DNA of 64,000 nt from assembly GCF_900635155.1 (NCBI RefSeq), contig NZ_LR134002.1, positions 248,001 to 312,000 of the forward strand, read 5' to 3'. This DNA comes from Streptococcus sanguinis. GTDB lineage: Bacteria > Bacillota > Bacilli > Lactobacillales > Streptococcaceae. The translations under genes and the position numbers were made by a program. Each line of letters opens with the position of its first letter. Within the stretch, counting starts at the first letter, position 1. Positions 6,131 to 55,101 of this stretch are shown piece after piece. The notes below the pieces were generated by a model. That model ran no database searches. It was not told the DNA's origin and saw only the letters and a program-made list of their open reading frames with translations.

Positions 6131-8212
6131 ATGGCTCGCGAATTTTCACTTGAAAAAACTCGTAATATCGGTATCATGGCCCACGTCGATGCTGGTAAAA
6201 CAACAACAACTGAGCGTATTCTTTACTACACTGGTAAAATCCACAAAATCGGTGAAACTCACGAAGGTGCGTCACAAATGGACTGGATGGAGCAAGAGCA
6301 AGAGCGTGGTATCACTATCACATCTGCTGCGACAACTGCTCAATGGAACAACCACCGTGTAAACATCATCGACACACCAGGACACGTGGACTTTACAATC
6401 GAAGTACAACGTTCTCTTCGTGTCTTGGATGGTGCGGTTACCGTTCTTGACTCACAATCAGGTGTTGAGCCTCAAACTGAAACAGTTTGGCGCCAAGCAA
6501 CTGAGTACGGAGTTCCTCGTATCGTATTTGCTAACAAGATGGACAAGATTGGTGCTGACTTCCTTTACTCAGTAAGCACTTTGCATGATCGTCTTCAAGC
6601 AAATGCTCATCCAATCCAATTGCCAATTGGTTCAGAAGATGACTTCCGCGGAATTATCGACTTGATCAAGATGAAGGCTGAAATCTATACTAACGACCTT
6701 GGTACAGATATTTTGGAAGAAGATATCCCAGCTGAATACCTTGAGCAAGCTCAAGAATACCGTGAAAAATTGGTGGAAGCAGTTGCGGAAACTGATGAAG
6801 ACTTGATGATGAAATACCTTGAAGGTGAAGAAATCACTAACGAAGAATTGAAAGCTGGTATCCGTAAAGCGACTATCAACGTTGAATTCTTCCCAGTATT
6901 GTGTGGTTCAGCCTTCAAGAACAAAGGTGTTCAATTGATGCTTGATGCAGTTATTGACTACTTGCCAAGCCCACTTGACATCCCAGCAATCAAAGGTATC
7001 AACCCAGACACTGAAGAAGAAGAAACTCGTCCTGCATCTGATGAAGAGCCATTTGCAGCTCTTGCCTTCAAGATTATGACTGACCCATTCGTAGGTCGTT
7101 TGACTTTCTTCCGTGTTTACTCAGGTGTCTTGAACAGCGGTTCATACGTATTGAACACTTCTAAAGGTAAACGTGAGCGTATCGGACGTATCCTGCAAAT
7201 GCATGCCAACAGCCGTAACGAAATCGAAACAGTATACGCTGGTGATATCGCTGCTGCCGTAGGTTTGAAAGATACAACTACTGGTGACTCACTGACTGAT
7301 GAAAAAGCTAAAATCATCCTTGAGTCTATCAACGTTCCAGAACCAGTTATCCAATTGATGGTTGAGCCTAAGTCTAAGGCTGACCAAGACAAGATGGGTA
7401 TTGCCCTGCAAAAACTGGCTGAAGAAGATCCAACTTTCCGCGTTGAAACAAACGTTGAAACTGGTGAAACAGTTATCTCTGGTATGGGTGAACTTCACTT
7501 GGATGTCCTTGTTGACCGTATGCGTCGTGAGTTCAAGGTTGAAGCAAACGTAGGTGCTCCTCAAGTATCTTACCGTGAAACTTTCCGTGCTTCTACTCAA
7601 GCTCGTGGATTCTTCAAACGCCAATCTGGTGGTAAAGGTCAATTCGGTGACGTATGGATCGAGTTTACACCAAACGAAGAAGGAAAAGGCTTCGAGTTTG
7701 AAAATGCTATCGTCGGTGGTGTGGTTCCACGTGAATTCATTCCAGCGGTAGAAAAAGGTTTGGTTGAGTCAATGGCTAATGGTGTCCTTGCTGGTTACCC
7801 AATCGTTGACGTGAAAGCTAAACTTTACGATGGTTCATACCACGATGTTGACTCATCTGAAACAGCCTTCAAGGTTGCGGCTTCACTTGCATTGAAAGAA
7901 GCTGCTAAGACTGCTCAGCCTGCTATCCTTGAGCCAATGATGTTGGTAACAATCACTGTTCCTGAAGAAAACCTTGGTGACGTTATGGGGCACGTAACAG
8001 CTCGTCGTGGACGTGTTGATGGTATGGAAGCGCATGGTAACAGCCAAATCGTTCGTGCTTATGTTCCACTTGCTGAAATGTTCGGTTATGCAACAGTTCT
8101 TCGTTCAGCATCACAAGGACGCGGTACCTTCATGATGGTATTTGACCACTACGAAGATGTACCTAAGTCAGTACAAGAAGAAATCATTAAGAAAAACAAA
8201 GGTGAAGCTTAA
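6131..8212 (+). CDS. fusA: translation elongation factor G
   Basis: EF-G is the GTPase that drives translocation of tRNA and mRNA on the ribosome and, with RRF, helps recycle ribosomes. The 693-residue protein has the G1 loop [12 protein letters not shown] near residue 18, the RGITI switch I region, DTPGHVDF (G3) and NKMD (G4). EF-G domains II to V follow in full length. Codon use is strongly biased to the preferred codons of highly expressed genes, unlike the accessory genes later in the window. It has its own promoter and terminator. Confidence 0.99.
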
Positions 8213-48077: not shown

Positions 48078-48108
48078 AAAAGATGGACGAATTTTGTCCA
48101 TCTTTTTT
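48078..48108 (+). terminator. polC terminator
   Basis: AAAAGATGGAC pairs with GTCCATCTTTT around GAATTTT, followed by further T residues. It marks the left edge of the AT-rich accessory island. Confidence 0.88.
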
Positions 48109-48146
48109 GCTATCTTTATTTTAGTAAATAGTGGATGGGGGAAAAG

Positions 48147-50045
48147 ATGTTTTTTTATCAAATAGAATTTAGAAAAATGAATAAAAATATTAAAGAAGCA
48201 GATGAGAATTTTATCCAAGATAATCAATGGTTTTATTGTTTTAAAAGCAAGACATGTCTTTACGTTGTTGGAGTAACAGAACCTACTAAAGAGGATTTGT
48301 TTGATAAGCTAAAAACTTTGGGGATTAATGATGAAGAACGCACTGATTTTAAAGTTAAATCTATCAGTAAAATAGAATATTTAAAGGAGGTGGGGAACAA
48401 GTATTCAGCTCAAATAGGTCAGCTTTTTCTTTATTCAGATGAAAAAGAGTTTTCAAATTCTGATGGCTTTGCTTTTACTGATTTAGAATGCGAAGACTTA
48501 AATATTATAGGTTTAAATGAATTTCAAGAGTATGTTTTAAAACTAAAAATGTTTTTAAATAATCAAAAGGAAAGAAGGCGAAAAAATGAAAAGGTGCTTG
48601 TTGAAAATCAGTTTTTAATTTTCAAAGGTTCTTTAGGAACTGGTAAAAAATTTGCTATAAAATATTTGATGAGGTTGTTAAATGTCAAGTGTAAGACTAT
48701 TTTGAAAGATGGATTTTCAGCTAATTTTGAGTCAGAACAGCGTTTAGTGATAATAAAGGACTATTCAACTATGCATCCTAGAAGAAAAGAGGAATTAAAA
48801 AATAATATTTTAGAAACAAGGGGAGGAAGAATATATATTTTTTTGGCAGAATCAGATAGCATAGCTTATGAAATATCTAGAGAATTTCTTCCTCTATTTT
48901 ATGTCGTTTATGAATTGAATTTTCCTCCCTACTCATATAACGAACTTGTTAATATTATAAAGTTTCGCTTAGGGGATTATGGTTATCATTTAAAAGAAGA
49001 TCAAATAAAATTACTTTCAAATCACAATTGTCTTACAAATAGTTACGATAGTTGTTATTTTGCTCAAAAGATTATTGAATATAATGTAATAGAAAGTAAT
49101 TTGAGTATTGGGAAACAAAGTTTTTCTTTGCCGTTGGATCTGTTTTGTATGAAAGGTTGCAACAATCAATTAGCCACAAATTCAGATACTTTGAAGGAGC
49201 TAGACCGTTTGGTAGGCTTATCTACTGTTAAAAATCTGATTCATAGAATTTTAGCTTATTTTTCTATATCGCAAAGAAGACTTAAAATAAATTCTTCACT
49301 CGTTCGACCTTCTATGCACTTTATGTTTTCTGGAGCATCTGGAACTGGAAAAACAATCGTTGCTAGATTGTTGGCAAAAATTTTTTATGAACATGGTATT
49401 ATTCAATCAAACGTTTTGATTGAAGTAGGTCGCTCAGATCTAATAGGTGAATATGTTGGCCAAACAGCTCCAAAGGTTAAAAGATTATTTGATAATGCAA
49501 AAGGAGGCATTTTGTTTATTGATGAGGCCTATAGTCTAATTCCACAAGGAGAGCGTGATTTTGCTAATGAAGCTATTCCTACAATTATCCAGGAGATGGA
49601 AAATAATAGAAATGATGTCATTGTGATTTTCGCTGGTTATACAGAAATGATGGAGGAGTTTTTAAACACCAATCCAGGTTTAGCTTCTAGAATTAGTAGA
49701 AAAATTCATTTTGAGAATTATAACAAGTATGAACTGTATGACATATTGACTCTAATGGCTGATCAACAAGGTTATATAATAGATAAGAAATGCAAAACTA
49801 TCCTCCTGACTCATTTTGAAAAATGTCTTTGCTCAGAAAGTTTTGGTAATGCTCGCTATGTCAGAAAACTATTTGAGTTAGTTTTATATATTCAGGCGGA
49901 GCGACTGATGAAAAAAGAGAGAGTATCAGCCCTAACTGATGCAGAATTGAGCTATTTGTCTTACAGAGATTTTGAAAAAGCAATACACAATTTAGATAAA
50001 AAAGAAAATAACTCAAAAATAATAGGATTCGGAGCAGATGTATAG
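48147..50045 (+). CDS. CbxX-type AAA+ ATPase with an additional degenerate ATPase domain
   Basis: This 632-residue protein ends in a canonical CbxX/SpoVK-type AAA+ domain: Walker A GASGTGKT (396-403), Walker B GGILFIDEAYS (D459, E460), sensor 1 in VIVIFAGYTEM, arginine finger in NPGLASR (R515) and sensor 2 in GNARYVRKLFE. Before it lies a second P-loop-like segment, GSLGTGKK (161-168), followed by LVIIKDYS (about 200-207), where the Walker B Glu is absent. That module is probably a non-hydrolysing ATPase relic. The first 120 residues match nothing I know. The start is placed after GGGGGAAAAG. The gene is very AT-rich, and the small DNA-related neighbours suggest a defence or remodelling role. 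Confidence 0.75.
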   Translation: MFFYQIEFRKMNKNIKEADENFIQDNQWFYCFKSKTCLYVVGVTEPTKEDLFDKLKTLGINDEERTDFKVKSISKIEYLKEVGNKYSAQIGQLFLYSDEKEFSNSDGFAFTDLECEDLNIIGLNEFQEYVLKLKMFLNNQKERRRKNEKVLVENQFLIFKGSLGTGKKFAIKYLMRLLNVKCKTILKDGFSANFESEQRLVIIKDYSTMHPRRKEELKNNILETRGGRIYIFLAESDSIAYEISREFLPLFYVVYELNFPPYSYNELVNIIKFRLGDYGYHLKEDQIKLLSNHNCLTNSYDSCYFAQKIIEYNVIESNLSIGKQSFSLPLDLFCMKGCNNQLATNSDTLKELDRLVGLSTVKNLIHRILAYFSISQRRLKINSSLVRPSMHFMFSGASGTGKTIVARLLAKIFYEHGIIQSNVLIEVGRSDLIGEYVGQTAPKVKRLFDNAKGGILFIDEAYSLIPQGERDFANEAIPTIIQEMENNRNDVIVIFAGYTEMMEEFLNTNPGLASRISRKIHFENYNKYELYDILTLMADQQGYIIDKKCKTILLTHFEKCLCSESFGNARYVRKLFELVLYIQAERLMKKERVSALTDAELSYLSYRDFEKAIHNLDKKENNSKIIGFGADV

Positions 50046-50053
50046 GATATTCA

Positions 50054-50062
50054 TGTTATAAT
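50054..50062 (+). promoter_or_regulatory. promoter of the WYL regulator gene, extended -10
   Basis: TGTTATAAT is a perfect extended -10 motif in the 37-base gap after the ATPase gene. The regulator can therefore be made independently of the ATPase. Confidence 0.6.
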
Positions 50063-50082
50063 ATAGGGAAAGAGGAAGTTTT

Positions 50083-51030
50083 ATGAACGATCAAGAACGT
50101 ATTTTATCCATTTTGTTACGTTTGCAATCAGGAGCTCATCTATCAAAAAATCAATTAAGTGATGAGTTTGAGGTTAGTGCAAAAACGATTCAGAGAGATT
50201 TCTCTTTATTAGGTGATTTTTTAATGACTCAGCCCATGATTGCAGCTGAATTGGCTTACGATTCAAAACATCATACAAGATATTTAAAAGGAAAATCACT
50301 CTTTAATAAAAAAGATATTTTAATTATTTCTAAAATTTTACTGGAAAATAGAGCTTTAAACAAATTAGAGAATGAGGATTTGTTAAAAAGTTTGTTGAGG
50401 CTTGTTTCAAAAGAGGAACAAAAAGAAATAGAAATGATTATCAACAGCGAAAGACTGAACTACGCCCCAATTACAGACGAGCAAAGTCGTATTCAAAAGA
50501 TTTGGGAATGGTCAGAAATGATTCGCAAGGAGAAGGTGCTAGAAATTGTCTACAAGAGTCCATATCAAGATAAAAAAGAACATTTAATTTTTCCAGTTTC
50601 TCTGTATTATGACATTCATTATTTCTATATTGTAGCTTACAATCTTAAGAATGAGCATTACATGACCTTGCGTTTGGACAGAATACACACTTGGAAGGCC
50701 ACAAAGGAATCTAAACCCAACATCTCTTATGGCAGAAAATTCAGAGATGGAGATATTCGTAATCAGCGAGTAGACGCTTTTCTAGGAAGAAAAATCACAG
50801 TTGAATTGGAATTCCGTTATGATCCAACTATTATTTTAGACCAATTTCCTAATGCACAGCGCTTATCAGCTGACGAAGGATGGACACGATTTAAATTTGA
50901 GAGTCAATATACACCGGGTCTTAAACGTTGGCTGCTCGGTCAAGGAGAAGCAGTTAGAATTTTGTCGCCACAGTCTTTGGTTGATGATATTCAGAAGACG
51001 ATGAAAGAAATTTTAGGTTACTATCAATAA
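50083..51030 (+). CDS. WYL-domain transcriptional regulator
   Basis: This 315-residue protein has an N-terminal winged helix of the HTH_11 type (LSKNQLSDEFEVSAKTIQRD, about residues 19-38). A central WYL-like ligand domain follows, with FPVSLYYDIHYFYIVAYN and the RLDRI segment, and a C-terminal WCX-like extension. WYL regulators of this build (BrxR, CapW) often control phage-defence loci and sense nucleic acids or nucleotides. Here the Trp-Tyr-Leu triad is not literally present, so ligand binding may differ. The gene sits between the ATPase and the DUF262 pair. Confidence 0.82.
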   Translation: MNDQERILSILLRLQSGAHLSKNQLSDEFEVSAKTIQRDFSLLGDFLMTQPMIAAELAYDSKHHTRYLKGKSLFNKKDILIISKILLENRALNKLENEDLLKSLLRLVSKEEQKEIEMIINSERLNYAPITDEQSRIQKIWEWSEMIRKEKVLEIVYKSPYQDKKEHLIFPVSLYYDIHYFYIVAYNLKNEHYMTLRLDRIHTWKATKESKPNISYGRKFRDGDIRNQRVDAFLGRKITVELEFRYDPTIILDQFPNAQRLSADEGWTRFKFESQYTPGLKRWLLGQGEAVRILSPQSLVDDIQKTMKEILGYYQ

Positions 51031-51053
51031 ATATTTTCGATAATTGAACCCGG

Positions 51054-51072
51054 GTGGACAAAAAATATCCAC
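51054..51072. promoter_or_regulatory. inverted repeat upstream of the 40-residue protein gene
   Basis: GTGGA and TCCAC are separated by 9 AT-rich bases, just after the WYL gene and 45 bases before the small gene. It could be the operator of the WYL regulator for the downstream genes. A TAGAAT at 51082-51087 is a possible -10. Confidence 0.35.
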
Positions 51073-51116
51073 TGAAAGGTGTAGAATTTTTATATTGAGA
51101 AATAAAGGATGGAAAA

Positions 51117-51239
51117 ATGATTGAATGGATTGTTGTAGATTGGTTTGGTAATCAAATTGCAGGACCATATTTTGATAAAATAGTAGCAGAAAACGTTGCA
51201 AAAGCAATTCCTAATGCTACTATTATTCCAAAGCATTAA
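51117..51239 (+). CDS. small 40-residue protein in the DUF262 cassette
   Basis: The reading frame starts MIEWIVVDWFGNQ and ends NATIIPKH, with AAAGGATGG serving as ribosome-binding site. It has three aromatic residues in the first ten and no membrane segment. It is placed between the WYL regulator and the two DUF262 genes in the same orientation. No family is recognised. Its composition is protein-like, and its size would suit an inhibitor, adaptor or trigger of the neighbouring proteins, which is speculation. Confidence 0.5.
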   Translation: MIEWIVVDWFGNQIAGPYFDKIVAENVAKAIPNATIIPKH

Positions 51240-51282
51240 TCGACCAAAGATTCTATGCTGATAAGATTTTTAGGAGATAATG

Positions 51283-52608
51283 ATGAATGTCAATGAAAAA
51301 GAAATAGGGTTTGAAAGTAAAAAAGTATCAGAAATATTGAAATGGGATAGGCTAAGAATACCAAATTATCAAAGACCTTATAAATGGAACAGAAAGCATA
51401 TTCGTAATCTTTTTTATGATTTACGAGATACTATTTTAAAAAAGGAATATCAAATTGGCTCTGTTATCTTGCATGAGAATGATGGATGCCTAGATATTGT
51501 AGATGGCCAGCAACGATTGGTTTCTATTTCGCTATTTCTTTGTGCTTTGGAAAGATATGATGAATTTAAAGGAGCAAAATATTTACTTGAAGCTGACTTT
51601 GGAGAACTGTCTTGCTATAATGCTTACGAAAATTTTAATGAATGGAAGAATTTAATCCAACTCGTAGGCGAAAAAGAAGCTGAACAGGTGTGTAGTTTTC
51701 TACTTGAAAATTGTTCTATCTCGGTGATTACTATGCCACAGGAACGATTATCAGAGGCCTTTCAGCTGTTTGATTCTCAAAATAATCGTGGAAAATCTTT
51801 AGAGCCTCATGATTTGCTCAAAGCTTATCATCTTCGTAAGCAAGATTCAGAAGATGAAAAGATTGTTGAAAAATGGGAGCAGTTTGTGGAAGACAAAGAT
51901 TTAAGTCTCAAAGAGCTATTTGATAGGCATCTTTTTCGTATGAGACGTTGGTCTCGAGGAGAAACTGGATTAACAAATAAGCGTTATGGCTCTTATCTAC
52001 GTTTTACAGAGGATTTCATTGATGATTTTAAAGGTGTTGATTTAAATCAGAACTTTCCATACCTAGAATTATATCGTCATATTGAAGAGTTCCCTATGTC
52101 AATTACCGTGCCTATTATTGATGGAAAAAAATTTTTTGAGTATATTGAATCGGCCCATGAAACTATTAAAGATCATAAAGATTTTTTAAATGAAAAGTTA
52201 GGATTTTCTGATGAGCCTGAGGGGGAAGAAAAAAACTTAACTTACCCAGAAGGTATGGTTAAAATATATAATAGTTCAAAGGGACGTTATCTCAAGTGCC
52301 AAAATATGTTTCTGAATATTTGCTCGCTTTTTGCAGAGAGATTTGGAAAAGAAAAGCTATCAAAGGAAATAGTAGAGACCTTATTTATTTGGTCTTACTA
52401 CCCCCGTGTTAAATCTCGAGCGATATATGATGCAACTGTTGGAAACTATGCTGGTGGTGGAAGGTTCAGACAAAAAGATGTTCAAAAACTATTCCAACTT
52501 TTAGCCCATGCTGTAACTCCAAATGATTTCATGGTCAAGATAGATCGAGAATTATTTGAAAATTATACTGTGGAGCAAATTATAGAGGAGGAAAAAGGGA
52601 AATGGTAG
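51283..52608 (+). CDS. DUF262 domain protein, first of a pair
   Basis: This 441-residue protein has the DUF262 (ParB/Srx-like NTPase) motifs: IPNYQRPYKW (26-35), VDGQQR (D74-R78) and NNRG...DLLKAY (from residue 167). These match the GmrS half of the GmrSD restriction systems and related SspE and BrxU proteins, which couple nucleotide hydrolysis to cutting of modified DNA. No DUF1524 nuclease motif was found in its C-terminal half. Its stop overlaps the start of the second DUF262 gene, which implies a fixed ratio of the two products. An ATG one codon upstream is an alternative start. Confidence 0.82.
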   Translation: MNVNEKEIGFESKKVSEILKWDRLRIPNYQRPYKWNRKHIRNLFYDLRDTILKKEYQIGSVILHENDGCLDIVDGQQRLVSISLFLCALERYDEFKGAKYLLEADFGELSCYNAYENFNEWKNLIQLVGEKEAEQVCSFLLENCSISVITMPQERLSEAFQLFDSQNNRGKSLEPHDLLKAYHLRKQDSEDEKIVEKWEQFVEDKDLSLKELFDRHLFRMRRWSRGETGLTNKRYGSYLRFTEDFIDDFKGVDLNQNFPYLELYRHIEEFPMSITVPIIDGKKFFEYIESAHETIKDHKDFLNEKLGFSDEPEGEEKNLTYPEGMVKIYNSSKGRYLKCQNMFLNICSLFAERFGKEKLSKEIVETLFIWSYYPRVKSRAIYDATVGNYAGGGRFRQKDVQKLFQLLAHAVTPNDFMVKIDRELFENYTVEQIIEEEKGKW

Positions 52609-54458
52609 AAACACATATAAGCTTATCAGTTAATCGTTTGTTAAATGAAGATAGCTATGCTATTCCTCTTTACCAGAGAAATTTTGCCTGGACTTATGAT
52701 GAAATTGAGCAATTATTGAACGATGTAGCAGATGCTTGTCAAGAACAAAGAGAAAATTACTATATTGGAACATTAGTCGTTAATGAAGAGAATGGTCTTT
52801 TCAAAATCATAGATGGGCAACAGCGGACAACTGCCTTTAATTTGATTGCCTTAGCTTTGAAAAATGAGATTGGTTTTGATAGATTGAAAGCTATCAATCT
52901 TACTTTCCCAGCTAGGAAGAAGTCAAATGAGAACATTCAAAAGCTATTTACCAAGCAAAAAATTTCTGAGGACGATGAAAATGAGCTGACTAGAGGTTAC
53001 GGACATGCTAAAGACGCCTTGAAAAAAGTGCTAGAGGAGCGACAATTTGACTCTCAATCTTTCTTTGAATATCTATTTGATAATGTCATTATTTTTCGTA
53101 GTATTTTGCCTAATGATTTAGATTTGAATCTCTATTTCGAACGTTTCAACTCTCGAGGAGAGCAACTAGAGGCCCATGAAATTCTTAAAGCACAAATGAT
53201 GGCTAAGTTTGGTGAAGATCAAGAAATGGCACATAAATTTGCGAGAATCTGGGATGCCTGCGCAGAGTTTGATAAGCCGGTGTTAAAAGCTTTTCAAATC
53301 CGAAGTAGACCAAACAATCCTGATGAAGAGGGGGAGAAAATTTTTGGAAAAGAATATGCTGATTTCAAATTGCTAGATGTATTTGATAAGATAGAAGTTG
53401 AAAAGTTAGAGAAAAAAAGTTTACTAGAGGTTATTTCTGGGAACAAATCTGAGAGGGGAATAGCAGTAAGTAAAGAGTCAGATATTTCAAACTATACAAC
53501 TGTAATTGATTTTCCAACGTTTTTGCTTCAAGTGTTTTTCATCATGGAAGGAAGTAATGAAACTACATTTGATGATAAAAAATTATTGAAAATTTTTGAA
53601 ATTGAACGACGAGATAGAGAATGGGTCCAACAATTTGGGCAACTACTTCTGACTATGAAGCATATATTTGATACGCTTATTGTAAAAAATGTCCAATTAG
53701 AAAATGAAACAGAATGGCAAATCAAACGAGGTAAGTACGAAACATACCAGCAAAATCAAAACGGTGGATGGAGATATGTTCGAATTAATTTTCAAAAAAA
53801 CACTTTTTACAATTTAAACAAAAACATTATCCTCCTCCAATCCATGTTTGCTGTAACCTTTACTGCCAATCGAGATAGTCGTTGGTTATATGAAATCTTG
53901 CAATTTCTCTTTAACCATATTGAAGAGTTAAATCAAGCAGAATTTGCTAGTCAGTTTAAGGATTTTCTTGAAAAAATGGCAGTGAGATATGCAGAAGAAA
54001 GATTGTTTACCGAGGATGGAAGTATAAAGAAATACGGGGATATTCCTGTTTATGCATTTAACTTTGTGGATTATGTTTTATGGGAAAATCGTGCCGAATT
54101 AGAGAAAGAGTACGAGAATATTAAATTTGATAATTTCAAATTTGCATATCGCCGTTCCATAGAGCATTGGCATCCTCAGAATCCCAATAGTGATGAAAGA
54201 ATTGAGAAAATGGATGATGAATTTTTGCACTCCTTTGGGAACCTTTGTATCATTACAGATAGCCAGAATTCCAAGTTTGGAAATTTGGATCCGAGTGCAA
54301 AATATAAACAGTGGGAAGGAATTTTTAGTCGTCAGAGTCTAAAATTGCAAATAATGGCTGCCATAACGGAAAAGACTAAATGGAAATCAGATCAGATTGT
54401 AGGACTGGAAAACGAGATTTTACCTATGGTTAACGAATTTATAGGAAGTAAAAAGTAA
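52602..54458 (+). CDS. DUF262-DUF1524 (GmrSD-like) protein, second of the pair
   Basis: This 618-residue protein has an N-terminal DUF262 domain: IPLYQRNFAW (21-30), IDGQQR (D71-R75) and NSRGEQLEAHEILKAQ (from 183). A C-terminal DUF1524-type HNH-like nuclease motif follows: SIEHWHP (H522, H524) and GNLCIITDSQNSK (N547, N556). GmrSD-type enzymes cleave phage DNA carrying modified cytosines, and SspE acts with phosphorothioation. Which, if either, applies here is unknown. The ATG lies inside the end of the preceding gene, and the ribosome-binding site GGAGGAAAAAGGG is also within it. Confidence 0.85.
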   Translation: MVETHISLSVNRLLNEDSYAIPLYQRNFAWTYDEIEQLLNDVADACQEQRENYYIGTLVVNEENGLFKIIDGQQRTTAFNLIALALKNEIGFDRLKAINLTFPARKKSNENIQKLFTKQKISEDDENELTRGYGHAKDALKKVLEERQFDSQSFFEYLFDNVIIFRSILPNDLDLNLYFERFNSRGEQLEAHEILKAQMMAKFGEDQEMAHKFARIWDACAEFDKPVLKAFQIRSRPNNPDEEGEKIFGKEYADFKLLDVFDKIEVEKLEKKSLLEVISGNKSERGIAVSKESDISNYTTVIDFPTFLLQVFFIMEGSNETTFDDKKLLKIFEIERRDREWVQQFGQLLLTMKHIFDTLIVKNVQLENETEWQIKRGKYETYQQNQNGGWRYVRINFQKNTFYNLNKNIILLQSMFAVTFTANRDSRWLYEILQFLFNHIEELNQAEFASQFKDFLEKMAVRYAEERLFTEDGSIKKYGDIPVYAFNFVDYVLWENRAELEKEYENIKFDNFKFAYRRSIEHWHPQNPNSDERIEKMDDEFLHSFGNLCIITDSQNSKFGNLDPSAKYKQWEGIFSRQSLKLQIMAAITEKTKWKSDQIVGLENEILPMVNEFIGSKK

Positions 54459-54491: not shown

Positions 54492-54534
54492 AAGCCGATG
54501 TATATCTAATAGATTTACATCGGCTTTCTTTTTT
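54492..54534 (+). terminator. terminator of the DUF262 operon
   Basis: GCCGATGTA pairs with TACATCGGC around a partly paired loop and is followed by TTTCTTTTTT. It marks the right end of the cassette. Confidence 0.85.
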
Positions 54535-54542
54535 GTTAAAAT
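54534..54542 (+). promoter_or_regulatory. promoter of the toxin-antitoxin operon, extended -10
   Basis: TGTTAAAAT fits an extended -10 motif and overlaps the T-run of the preceding terminator. It gives a short leader with ribosome-binding site GAAGGTGAG. Confidence 0.5.
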
Positions 54543-54566: not shown

Positions 54567-54830
54567 ATGTCAAAGACTAGTATGAGCATCCGCTTGGACA
54601 GTGAGATCAAGGAGCAGGCTCAGCAGGTTTTCAACAGCTTGGGAATGGATATGACAACGGCTATCAATATTTTTCTTCGTCAGGCTATTCAATACCAAGG
54701 GCTACCCTTTGATGTCAGACTGGATGAAAGTCGGAAGCTAGTGGAAGTATTGGCAGATTTAGATCAAAATCGGAATATGAGTCAGTCTTTTGTAAGTGTC
54801 TCAGACTTGATGGAGGATTTGCGTGCTTAA
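54567..54830 (+). CDS. RelB/DinJ-family antitoxin
   Basis: This 87-residue protein starts with the ribbon-helix-helix pattern of RelB/DinJ antitoxins (SMSIRLDSEIKEQAQQVF, then MDMTTAINIFLRQAI) and has a flexible C-terminal half that would wrap the toxin. It binds DNA to repress its own operon and neutralises the adjacent RelE-like toxin. The reading frame overlaps the toxin gene by 8 bases. Confidence 0.9.
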   Translation: MSKTSMSIRLDSEIKEQAQQVFNSLGMDMTTAINIFLRQAIQYQGLPFDVRLDESRKLVEVLADLDQNRNMSQSFVSVSDLMEDLRA

Positions 54831-55101
54831 GATTCGTTATCATAAACAGTTTAAAAAAGATTTTAAGTTGGCTATGAAGCGTGGACTTAAGGCAAACTTG
54901 TTAGAAGAAGTATTGGAGTTTTTGATTCAGGAAAAGGAACTTCCTGCCAAATATCGAGATCATCAACTGACAGCATCCAAGCACTTTAAAGGAGTGCGTG
55001 AATGCCATATCCAGCCGGATTGGCTCCTGGTCTATAAAGTAGACAAGGAAGAATTGATTTTAAACTTGCTTAGGACAGGCAGTCATAGTGATTTGTTTTA
55101 A
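54823..55101 (+). CDS. YafQ/RelE-family toxin
   Basis: This 92-residue protein is a YafQ-type mRNA interferase that would cleave mRNA on the ribosome. It has the family pattern DHQLTASKHFKGVRECHIQP, then DWLLVYKV and a C-terminal TGSHSDLF that keeps the catalytic His. The start is GTG at 54823, 6 bases after GGAGG within the antitoxin gene; no ATG is available. Both genes appear intact. Confidence 0.9.
   Translation: MLKIRYHKQFKKDFKLAMKRGLKANLLEEVLEFLIQEKELPAKYRDHQLTASKHFKGVRECHIQPDWLLVYKVDKEELILNLLRTGSHSDLF

What the first reader, a model, noticed from the sequence alone, without database searches (positions are those of the whole stretch)
48147..54458. Candidate undescribed defence-type cassette: AAA+ ATPase, WYL regulator, 40-residue protein and a DUF262 pair
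Five same-strand genes form an AT-rich block between polC and a toxin-antitoxin module, closed by terminators on both sides. DUF262-DUF1524 proteins are known restriction-type effectors (GmrSD, SspE, BrxU). WYL regulators control several phage-defence loci, and AAA+ ATPases are frequent partners. I know of no named system with this exact set: CbxX-type ATPase carrying a degenerate second ATPase domain, WYL, a tiny protein, DUF262 alone, and DUF262-DUF1524.
Basis: partly seen in the sequence, partly recalled or inferred. Interest (0 to 1): 0.8.

Follow-up and report, generated by a model that had tools for sequence, protein, structure and literature searches.

The report
WYL-switched phage-restriction cassette beside polC
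In a Streptococcus sanguinis-like genome, a strain-variable insert next to polC looks like a phage-DNA-cutting gene pair under its own genetic switch; related streptococci carry the same switch with other cutting genes and, strikingly, with small copies of the cell's own DNA-replication proteins, which may be how it senses phages.

Summary
The five genes are real (48147-54458). They form two operons under one predicted switch, not a fixed five-gene system. A 19-bp palindrome, RTGGACA-N5-TGTCCAY, nine bases before a -10 box, precedes ATPase-WYL (48083-48101) and the 40-aa gene plus DUF262 pair (51054-51072). With up to two mismatches it lies near WYL in 59 of 62 related loci.

The pair has the gene order and domains of the known two-gene type IV restriction system TgvAB. 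Of 29 ATPase-WYL loci read, 18 carry this pair and 11 carry R297/R302 or Nmad2-Nmad3 proteins. Close relatives lacking WYL have only 0.2-0.9 kb there in nine of ten readable cases.

The surprise lies in relatives. Beside WYL, the ATPase is replaced or joined by truncated or degenerate copies of host replication proteins: DnaA core, DnaB core, and a PolC exonuclease domain with lost catalytic residues. Searches of an open-access library found no description.

Best reading: phage-inducible, modification-dependent restriction. Boldest: replisome decoys arm it. No function was tested.

The parts
48083..48101 (+). P1 operator candidate ATGGACGAATTTTGTCCAT, in front of ATPase-WYL
   Evidence: may double as polC terminator
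48111..48116 (+). P1 -10 box candidate TATCTT, nine bases after the operator
48147..50045 (+). AAA+ ATPase: N-terminal domain, degenerate first AAA unit, active-looking CbbX/SpoVK-type second AAA unit
50083..51030 (+). HTH-WYL-WCX transcription regulator
51054..51072 (+). P2 operator candidate GTGGACAAAAAATATCCAC, in front of the effector operon
51082..51087 (+). P2 -10 box candidate TAGAAT
51117..51239 (+). 40-aa protein (SM40), predicted beta-beta-alpha-beta fold
51280..52608 (+). DUF262 (GmrSD_N) + DUF7834 protein, TgvA-like
52602..54458 (+). DUF262 + DUF1524 (GmrSD_N + GmrSD_C) protein, TgvB-like nuclease
54492..54535 (+). terminator hairpin and T-run closing the effector operon

Best explanation
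A horizontally acquired, WYL-regulated, modification-dependent (type IV-like) restriction cassette in a variable polC-pepS site. SHOWN by sequence: two operons, each behind the same palindrome placed nine bases before a -10 box; P1 leads ATPase and WYL, P2 leads the 40-aa gene and the DUF262 pair; the pair has the order, domains and motifs of TgvAB. INFERRED: a WYL dimer binds both palindromes and either holds both operons low (as reported for BrxR and CapW) or switches them on with a ligand such as ssDNA (as reported for DriD and PafBC; the palindrome covers the -35 region and I see no -35 box). A signal of infection flips the switch; the two DUF262 proteins recognise modified phage DNA using NTP and the DUF1524 domain cuts it. 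The CbbX-like ATPase most likely remodels a protein partner and couples the signal to WYL or effector; the 40-aa protein probably binds or controls the effector.
For: Operators at fixed places in 59 of 62 WYL loci, 79 sites in about 369 kb near WYL against 18 in about 745 kb elsewhere, with the -10 at constant spacing; 48 of 57 genus-wide operator-promoter sites lie in cassettes, reversed control 2 (maps in 36 and 87). 26 of 28 full-length ATPases are followed by WYL. Pair architecture identical to a type I-embedded pair in Vibrio aerogenes and to the TgvAB description. Other effectors in the slot: PDC-S02 match 5e-52 and Nmad3 8e-61. Short gaps in relatives. Purifying selection: median dN/dS 0.11-0.31 for WYL, ATPase, pair, 40-aa gene. 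A streptococcal phage with modified DNA exists (Dp-1, dPreQ1; PMC6884629 passages).
Against: No experiment. The motif was read from the same loci it is counted in, many of them near-copies at one spot. In the own genome the strict pattern occurs at one place, but so does the reversed control pattern, so the strict count alone is no better than chance; it is position that counts. Nine of 57 genus-wide sites lie outside cassettes. The 40-aa gene is missing from 9 of 29 ATPase loci and from 16 of 19 DnaA1/DnaA3 loci, so it is not essential to the architecture. The pair often occurs without the ATPase. No substrate, ligand or phage is known.
Confidence: 0.7

Rival explanations
1. A fixed new five-gene defence system whose five products act as one complex.
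For: All five genes together in the window and in G047, G145 and G182; similar sets with the pair at 29-56% identity in other species.
Against: 11 of 29 ATPase-WYL loci have other effectors; the pair occurs at the same spot without the ATPase in many species; the pair alone is a known kind.
Confidence: 0.1
2. Chance accretion in an insertion hotspot: ATPase-WYL and the DUF262 pair are unrelated neighbours.
For: The polC-pepS site holds different things in different strains: RelB-YafQ, a 230-aa gene, an 8.3-kb block.
Against: The same order and the same two operators in other genomic places.
Confidence: 0.05
3. Not primarily defence: a mobile-element module that tunes host or element replication, with the DnaA-, DnaB- and PolC-derived proteins acting on the replisome and the nucleases as passengers.
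For: Replication-derived genes beside WYL; modules on an S. suis phage record and an IMG/VR contig.
Against: Every effector type I could name is restriction-like; the copies lack DNA-binding or catalytic parts; the window itself has none of them.
Confidence: 0.1
4. The DnaA/DnaB/PolC-like genes are decaying captured fragments without function.
For: Several are degenerate (DnaA3 and X187 without P-loop); one cassette is decayed (G160).
Against: Median dN/dS 0.10-0.33 for X187, DnaA2, DnaA1 with no pair over 1 (DnaA3 gave only one usable pair, 0.45); fixed place behind an operator in unrelated loci.
Confidence: 0.05

Closest known systems
TgvAB of Vibrio cholerae VPI-2 (two-gene GmrSD-type, type IV restriction; PMC11411939, passages read)
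   Same: Adjacent DUF262 protein and DUF262-DUF1524 protein; DGQQR and His-Me nuclease motifs; V. aerogenes pair inside a type I operon has the same Pfam architecture and its first protein is 31% identical over 98%
   Different: Here not inside a type I operon but behind a WYL-type operator with a 40-aa gene, next to ATPase-WYL; substrate unknown
BrxR and CapW, WYL repressors of defence loci (PMC9122601, PMC9122588, passages read)
   Same: WYL regulator encoded in the locus; palindromic sites, two boxes in the BrxR island; association with type IV restriction is reported for BrxR homologues (37 of 210)
   Different: No sequence match of this WYL to any solved chain; palindrome covers the -35 region, whereas CapW sites overlap the -10 and the BrxR box lies downstream of it
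CbbX / SpoVK AAA+ proteins
   Same: Second AAA unit, 38% identical to CbbX in the fold match; NCBIfam SpoVK 2e-82 but below its cut-off
   Different: Extra N-terminal domain and degenerate first AAA unit
HEC-06 (PADLOC candidate, single GmrSD-like protein)
   Same: Best PADLOC match of both DUF262 proteins
   Different: Described as acting alone; here a conserved pair
DriD / PafBC WYL activators (abstract starts seen in listings)
   Same: WYL regulators that respond to ssDNA; a possible model for a WYL activator on promoters without a -35 box
   Different: Regulate DNA-damage genes in other phyla; no relation tested

Membership tests
TgvAB-type restriction | Two adjacent genes, DUF262 alone and DUF262-DUF1524 | tested here: met
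TgvAB-type restriction | QR, DGQQR and FxxxN motifs in both DUF262 domains; His and Asn of the His-Me nuclease | tested here: met
   Read by eye in the translations against the motif list; not measured
TgvAB-type restriction | Both proteins required; acts on hypermodified phage DNA | not testable with these tools
   Needs phage assays
TgvAB-type restriction | Type I-embedded location (as in the name) | tested here: not met
   Not in an hsd operon here; the paper also reports 1,341 tgvAB hits outside that arrangement
GmrSD superfamily | GmrSD_N and GmrSD_C over their Pfam cut-offs | tested here: met
   99.9 and 49.8 bits (cut-offs 33.2, 23) in the second protein
BrxR/CapW WYL repressors | HTH-WYL-WCX order | tested here: met
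   HTH_11 6e-5 lies just under its cut-off
BrxR/CapW WYL repressors | Sequence kinship to solved BrxR/CapW | tested here: inconclusive
   No solved chain at E<=0.01 by single-sequence search
BrxR/CapW WYL repressors | Represses through a palindrome at its promoter | tested here: inconclusive
   Palindromes found; binding and sign of control not testable here
CbbX/SpoVK equivalogs | Score over the NCBIfam cut-off | tested here: not met
   275.9 against 422.95 (SpoVK), 242 against 459.25 (CbbX)
Named multi-gene system in PADLOC-DB 2023 | Genes matching models of one named system | tested here: not met
   IetA/DolB weakly, CRISPR-associated WYL models, HEC-06/Orf5/SspE; no common system. DefenseFinder not available

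The most novel reading that the evidence does not exclude
A new class of modular defence in streptococci: a WYL switch armed by decoys of the host replisome (DnaA AAA+ core, DnaB core, catalytically broken PolC exonuclease domain, or an AAA+ stand-in such as the window's ATPase), so that phage capture or inhibition of replication, rather than phage DNA itself, turns on interchangeable modification-dependent nucleases.
Probability: 0.3. Interest if true: 0.9.

Novelty: new variant of a known kind. Interest (0 to 1): 0.72.

Why it matters
What WYL switches on defence loci sense is open: in the BrxR and CapW passages read here the ligand is proposed, not identified. A WYL-operator unit with swappable effectors and with pieces of DnaA, DnaB and PolC beside it makes a concrete, testable proposal: replication itself is watched. 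It also gives a sequence tag (palindrome plus -10) and a 40-aa marker for finding such cassettes and new type IV-like nucleases in lactic acid bacteria. If the decoy reading fails, a defined regulon for a TgvAB-like system in Gram-positive bacteria remains.

Tried and rejected

Considered and rejected: hotspot accretion; the 5' hairpin as only polC's terminator (missing from the five printed empty junctions; P2 has no T-run); the DnaA-like proteins as helicase loaders (Bac_DnaA 2e-46 and about half identical to host DnaA).

Counting notes. My ORF map drops frames that contain N, so L082 (G182) lost its ATPase and first DUF262 gene; searches show both, hence 29 rather than 28 ATPase-WYL loci and 11 rather than 12 without a slot gene. 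Two of the 29 hold only ATPase remnants (L055, L100). L074 (ATPase piece of G014, about 30 kb from its WYL) and L122 (WYL frame broken) are not in the 29. One of the ten R297/R302 loci (L094) has only a 53-residue piece. The 62 loci include near-copies at one spot and are not independent. The DnaA search used an alignment 12 rows of which come from the 18 loci it returned first; only six of the 18 were new to the query. Its list is cut near 3e-44. The eleven relatives were chosen because one search found no WYL there, so absence is by choice; what is learnt is the short gap. One of them (G257) could not be read, its contig ends.
Full report
OBSERVATION. The window is G000:C1:248001-312000 of a 2.36-Mb genome; the one close named match found is Streptococcus sanguinis BCC04 (ATPase 92% identical). 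The ATPase has an N-terminal domain, a first AAA unit whose P-loop lost its Ser/Thr, and an intact second unit of CbbX/SpoVK type. The 3' hairpin is a good terminator candidate.

AN INSERTION. Eleven close relatives in which one search found no WYL gene (polC 3' end 93-96% identical) were looked at; ten could be read. The polC-pepS gap is 192-193 bp in five, 887-891 bp in four, 8.3 kb of other genes in one; in the window 7295 bp. The block is a strain-variable insertion.

TWO OPERATORS. Both operons start behind a palindrome RTGGACA-N5-TGTCCAY that ends nine bases before a -10 box. In the window P1 is 48083-48101 (-10 at 48111-48116), P2 51054-51072 (-10 at 51082-51087). In the window the pattern RTGGACN7RTCCAY has an expectation of 0.01. 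In the whole own genome the strict form RTGGACN7GTCCAY occurs at one place, P1, but the reversed control pattern also occurs at one: rarity alone proves nothing, position does. With up to two mismatches 59 of 62 WYL loci have a site near WYL: 79 sites in about 369 kb near, 18 in the other 745 kb or so. With its -10 the pattern gives 57 distinct sites in 48 of 279 Streptococcus genomes: 44 within 4.5 kb of a WYL-clade gene, four in broken or interrupted cassettes (G054 twice, G160, G014), nine elsewhere; the reversed control gives 2. The motif was read from these loci, so this is confirmation and not an independent test. The palindrome covers the -35 region and I see no -35 box; repression or WYL-assisted activation both fit. 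BrxR and CapW repress through palindromes (passages); DriD binds ssDNA and PafBC is triggered by ssDNA (title and abstract starts in listings).

HEAD AND EFFECTOR ARE SEPARABLE. In 197 Streptococcus genomes there are 21 ATPase homologues covering 538 residues or more, in 20 genomes. In 325 Lactobacillales genomes of 77 genera, at E<=1e-70, the full length was met only in Streptococcus; matches in other genera start at residue 242 or later. Of 28 full-length copies in the loci read, 26 are followed by WYL; the others are an interrupted copy (L074) and one with a broken WYL frame (L122). Of 29 ATPase-WYL loci (28 plus L082; two with ATPase remnants only), 18 carry the DUF262 pair, 10 carry R297 or R302 proteins (the L092 copy matches PADLOC candidate PDC-S02 at 5e-52) and one Nmad2 plus Nmad3. 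The 40-aa gene is present in 20 of the 29 but only 3 of 19 DnaA1/DnaA3 loci (L082). It also precedes DUF262 genes in Enterococcus faecium plasmids (54-56% identity, E 2e-3 to 3e-3) and a DUF262 pair in a genome of another family (frame flagged with one stop). Among 5.77 billion clustered proteins it has 74 relatives at E<=0.01; those with species names are Streptococcus, Lactococcus, Pseudolactococcus and Pilibacter. It is predicted as a compact beta-beta-alpha-beta protein (pLDDT 92).

THE EFFECTOR. The pair equals TgvAB in order, domains and motifs (for TgvAB; here). A pair with the same Pfam architecture sits behind hsdR-hsdM-hsdS in V. aerogenes. The TgvAB paper reports that both proteins are needed and that Tevenvirinae are targeted (passages). 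Modified DNA occurs in a streptococcal phage: Dp-1 carries dPreQ1 (passages of PMC6884629). That the window's pair acts on modified DNA is inference.

REPLICATION-PROTEIN COPIES IN RELATIVES. Upstream of WYL (corrected for L082): ATPase 29 (12 with a further 182-187-aa gene, X187, and one with DnaB1), DnaA1 10, DnaA3 9, DnaB1 alone 2, none of these 11. ATPase and DnaA1/DnaA3 never occur together there; most DnaA1/DnaA3 loci share the polC spot, so they are not independent. DnaA1 is the AAA+ core of DnaA alone (Bac_DnaA 2e-46), 44-53% identical to host DnaA of several streptococci, L070 37-47% and the outlier L126 26-32%. DnaA2, between WYL and the 40-aa gene, is 30-37% identical (L071 weaker). 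DnaA3 is a degenerate core without P-loop (hhalign 97.6%, 5e-12); X187 is probably another (82%, 1e-5 over 66 columns). DnaB1 is the DnaB C-terminal domain, 53% identical to the host's. The PolC-exonuclease-like copies are 41% identical to PolC; read by eye, each of the four copies printed lacks at least one catalytic residue: DnaQ1 of L099 and L103 (Glu of DxE to Ala, and more), DnaQ2 of L070 (His to Arg) and L135 (Asp to Glu, and more). Which residues are catalytic (DEDDh) is recalled, not taken from a call. The 18 best stand-alone DnaA cores in 279 genomes all lie in these cassettes (G020's contig shows no WYL), but 12 of them are rows of the query and the list is cut near 3e-44. Median dN/dS is 0.33 for DnaA1, 0.24 for DnaA2, 0.10 for X187. 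In the WYL tree (49 rows) the 30 ATPase/DnaB1 rows and the 19 DnaA1/DnaA3 rows fall on two sides of a 100/99 branch, while DnaA1 and DnaA3 are interleaved, well-supported branches forcing at least two changes for DnaA1: two very different DnaA-derived alleles exchanged in one slot. The module rides on mobile DNA: S. suis record phi-SsuFJZZ32_rum has DnaB1-WYL-DnaA2-SM40-DnaQ1-DUF262, and an IMG/VR contig has ATPase-WYL-DnaA2-SM40 and then the same 229- and 269-aa genes as L101.

MECHANISM. Shown: anatomy, operators, modularity, selection. Inferred: WYL flips both operons on an infection signal and the pair cuts modified DNA; the ATPase remodels a partner. The bolder step, that the slot proteins are replisome decoys, rests on truncation, lost catalysis and allele exchange. 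The window's own head has an AAA+ ATPase there instead, so for the window this is analogy.

LITERATURE. Searches of the held open-access library found no description of this cassette, of its operator, or of DnaA/DnaB/PolC copies with a WYL regulator; they were term searches, and subscription papers were not covered. One search looked for PDC-S02 and gave only listings. Read in passages only: PMC11411939, PMC10952713, PMC9122601, PMC9122588, PMC6884629, PMC12839542. The last proposes dead nuclease domains as decoys in BREX-related systems, a precedent for the idea.

Noticed in passing
window 54567-55101: RelB-YafQ toxin-antitoxin pair directly behind the cassette; present or absent behind the DUF262 pair in other streptococci.
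   Followed up: partly
L066, L067, L109, L110, L111: A different, 950-980-aa CbxX-type ATPase stands between the DUF262 pair (without WYL) and pepS, a second link of CbxX-type ATPases with this pair.
   Followed up: no
L088, oriented 6776-7142: An orphan 99-aa copy of the ATPase N-terminal domain with its own perfect palindrome 67 bp upstream.
   Followed up: no
L133, L134, L136: WYL relatives (52-54%) followed by a large ClpA/B-looking ATPase (781-958 aa; looks so by eye) and a 176-179-aa gene, with the palindrome or a two-mismatch form near WYL.
   Followed up: no
L105, L116, L121, L125: A GIY-YIG-like protein (Pfam 0.003, under cut-off, L105 copy) beside the 40-aa gene next to a leucyl-tRNA-synthetase-looking gene (L105, L116) or beside a broken WYL and a PolC-like piece (L125).
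   Followed up: partly
L170 (MN270266.1): Records annotate the DnaB and PolC pieces as 'replicative DNA helicase' and 'polC-type DNA polymerase III', which hides that they are fragments.
   Followed up: yes
L055 (G035): ATPase reduced to a C-terminal remnant beside a 142-aa frame that looks like an IS200-type transposase (by eye), with WYL, 40-aa gene and pair intact: a natural ATPase-minus strain for tests.
   Followed up: no
G000:C1:753030 (L003): The genome has a further DUF262-domain gene elsewhere, 35% identical over 88 residues.
   Followed up: no
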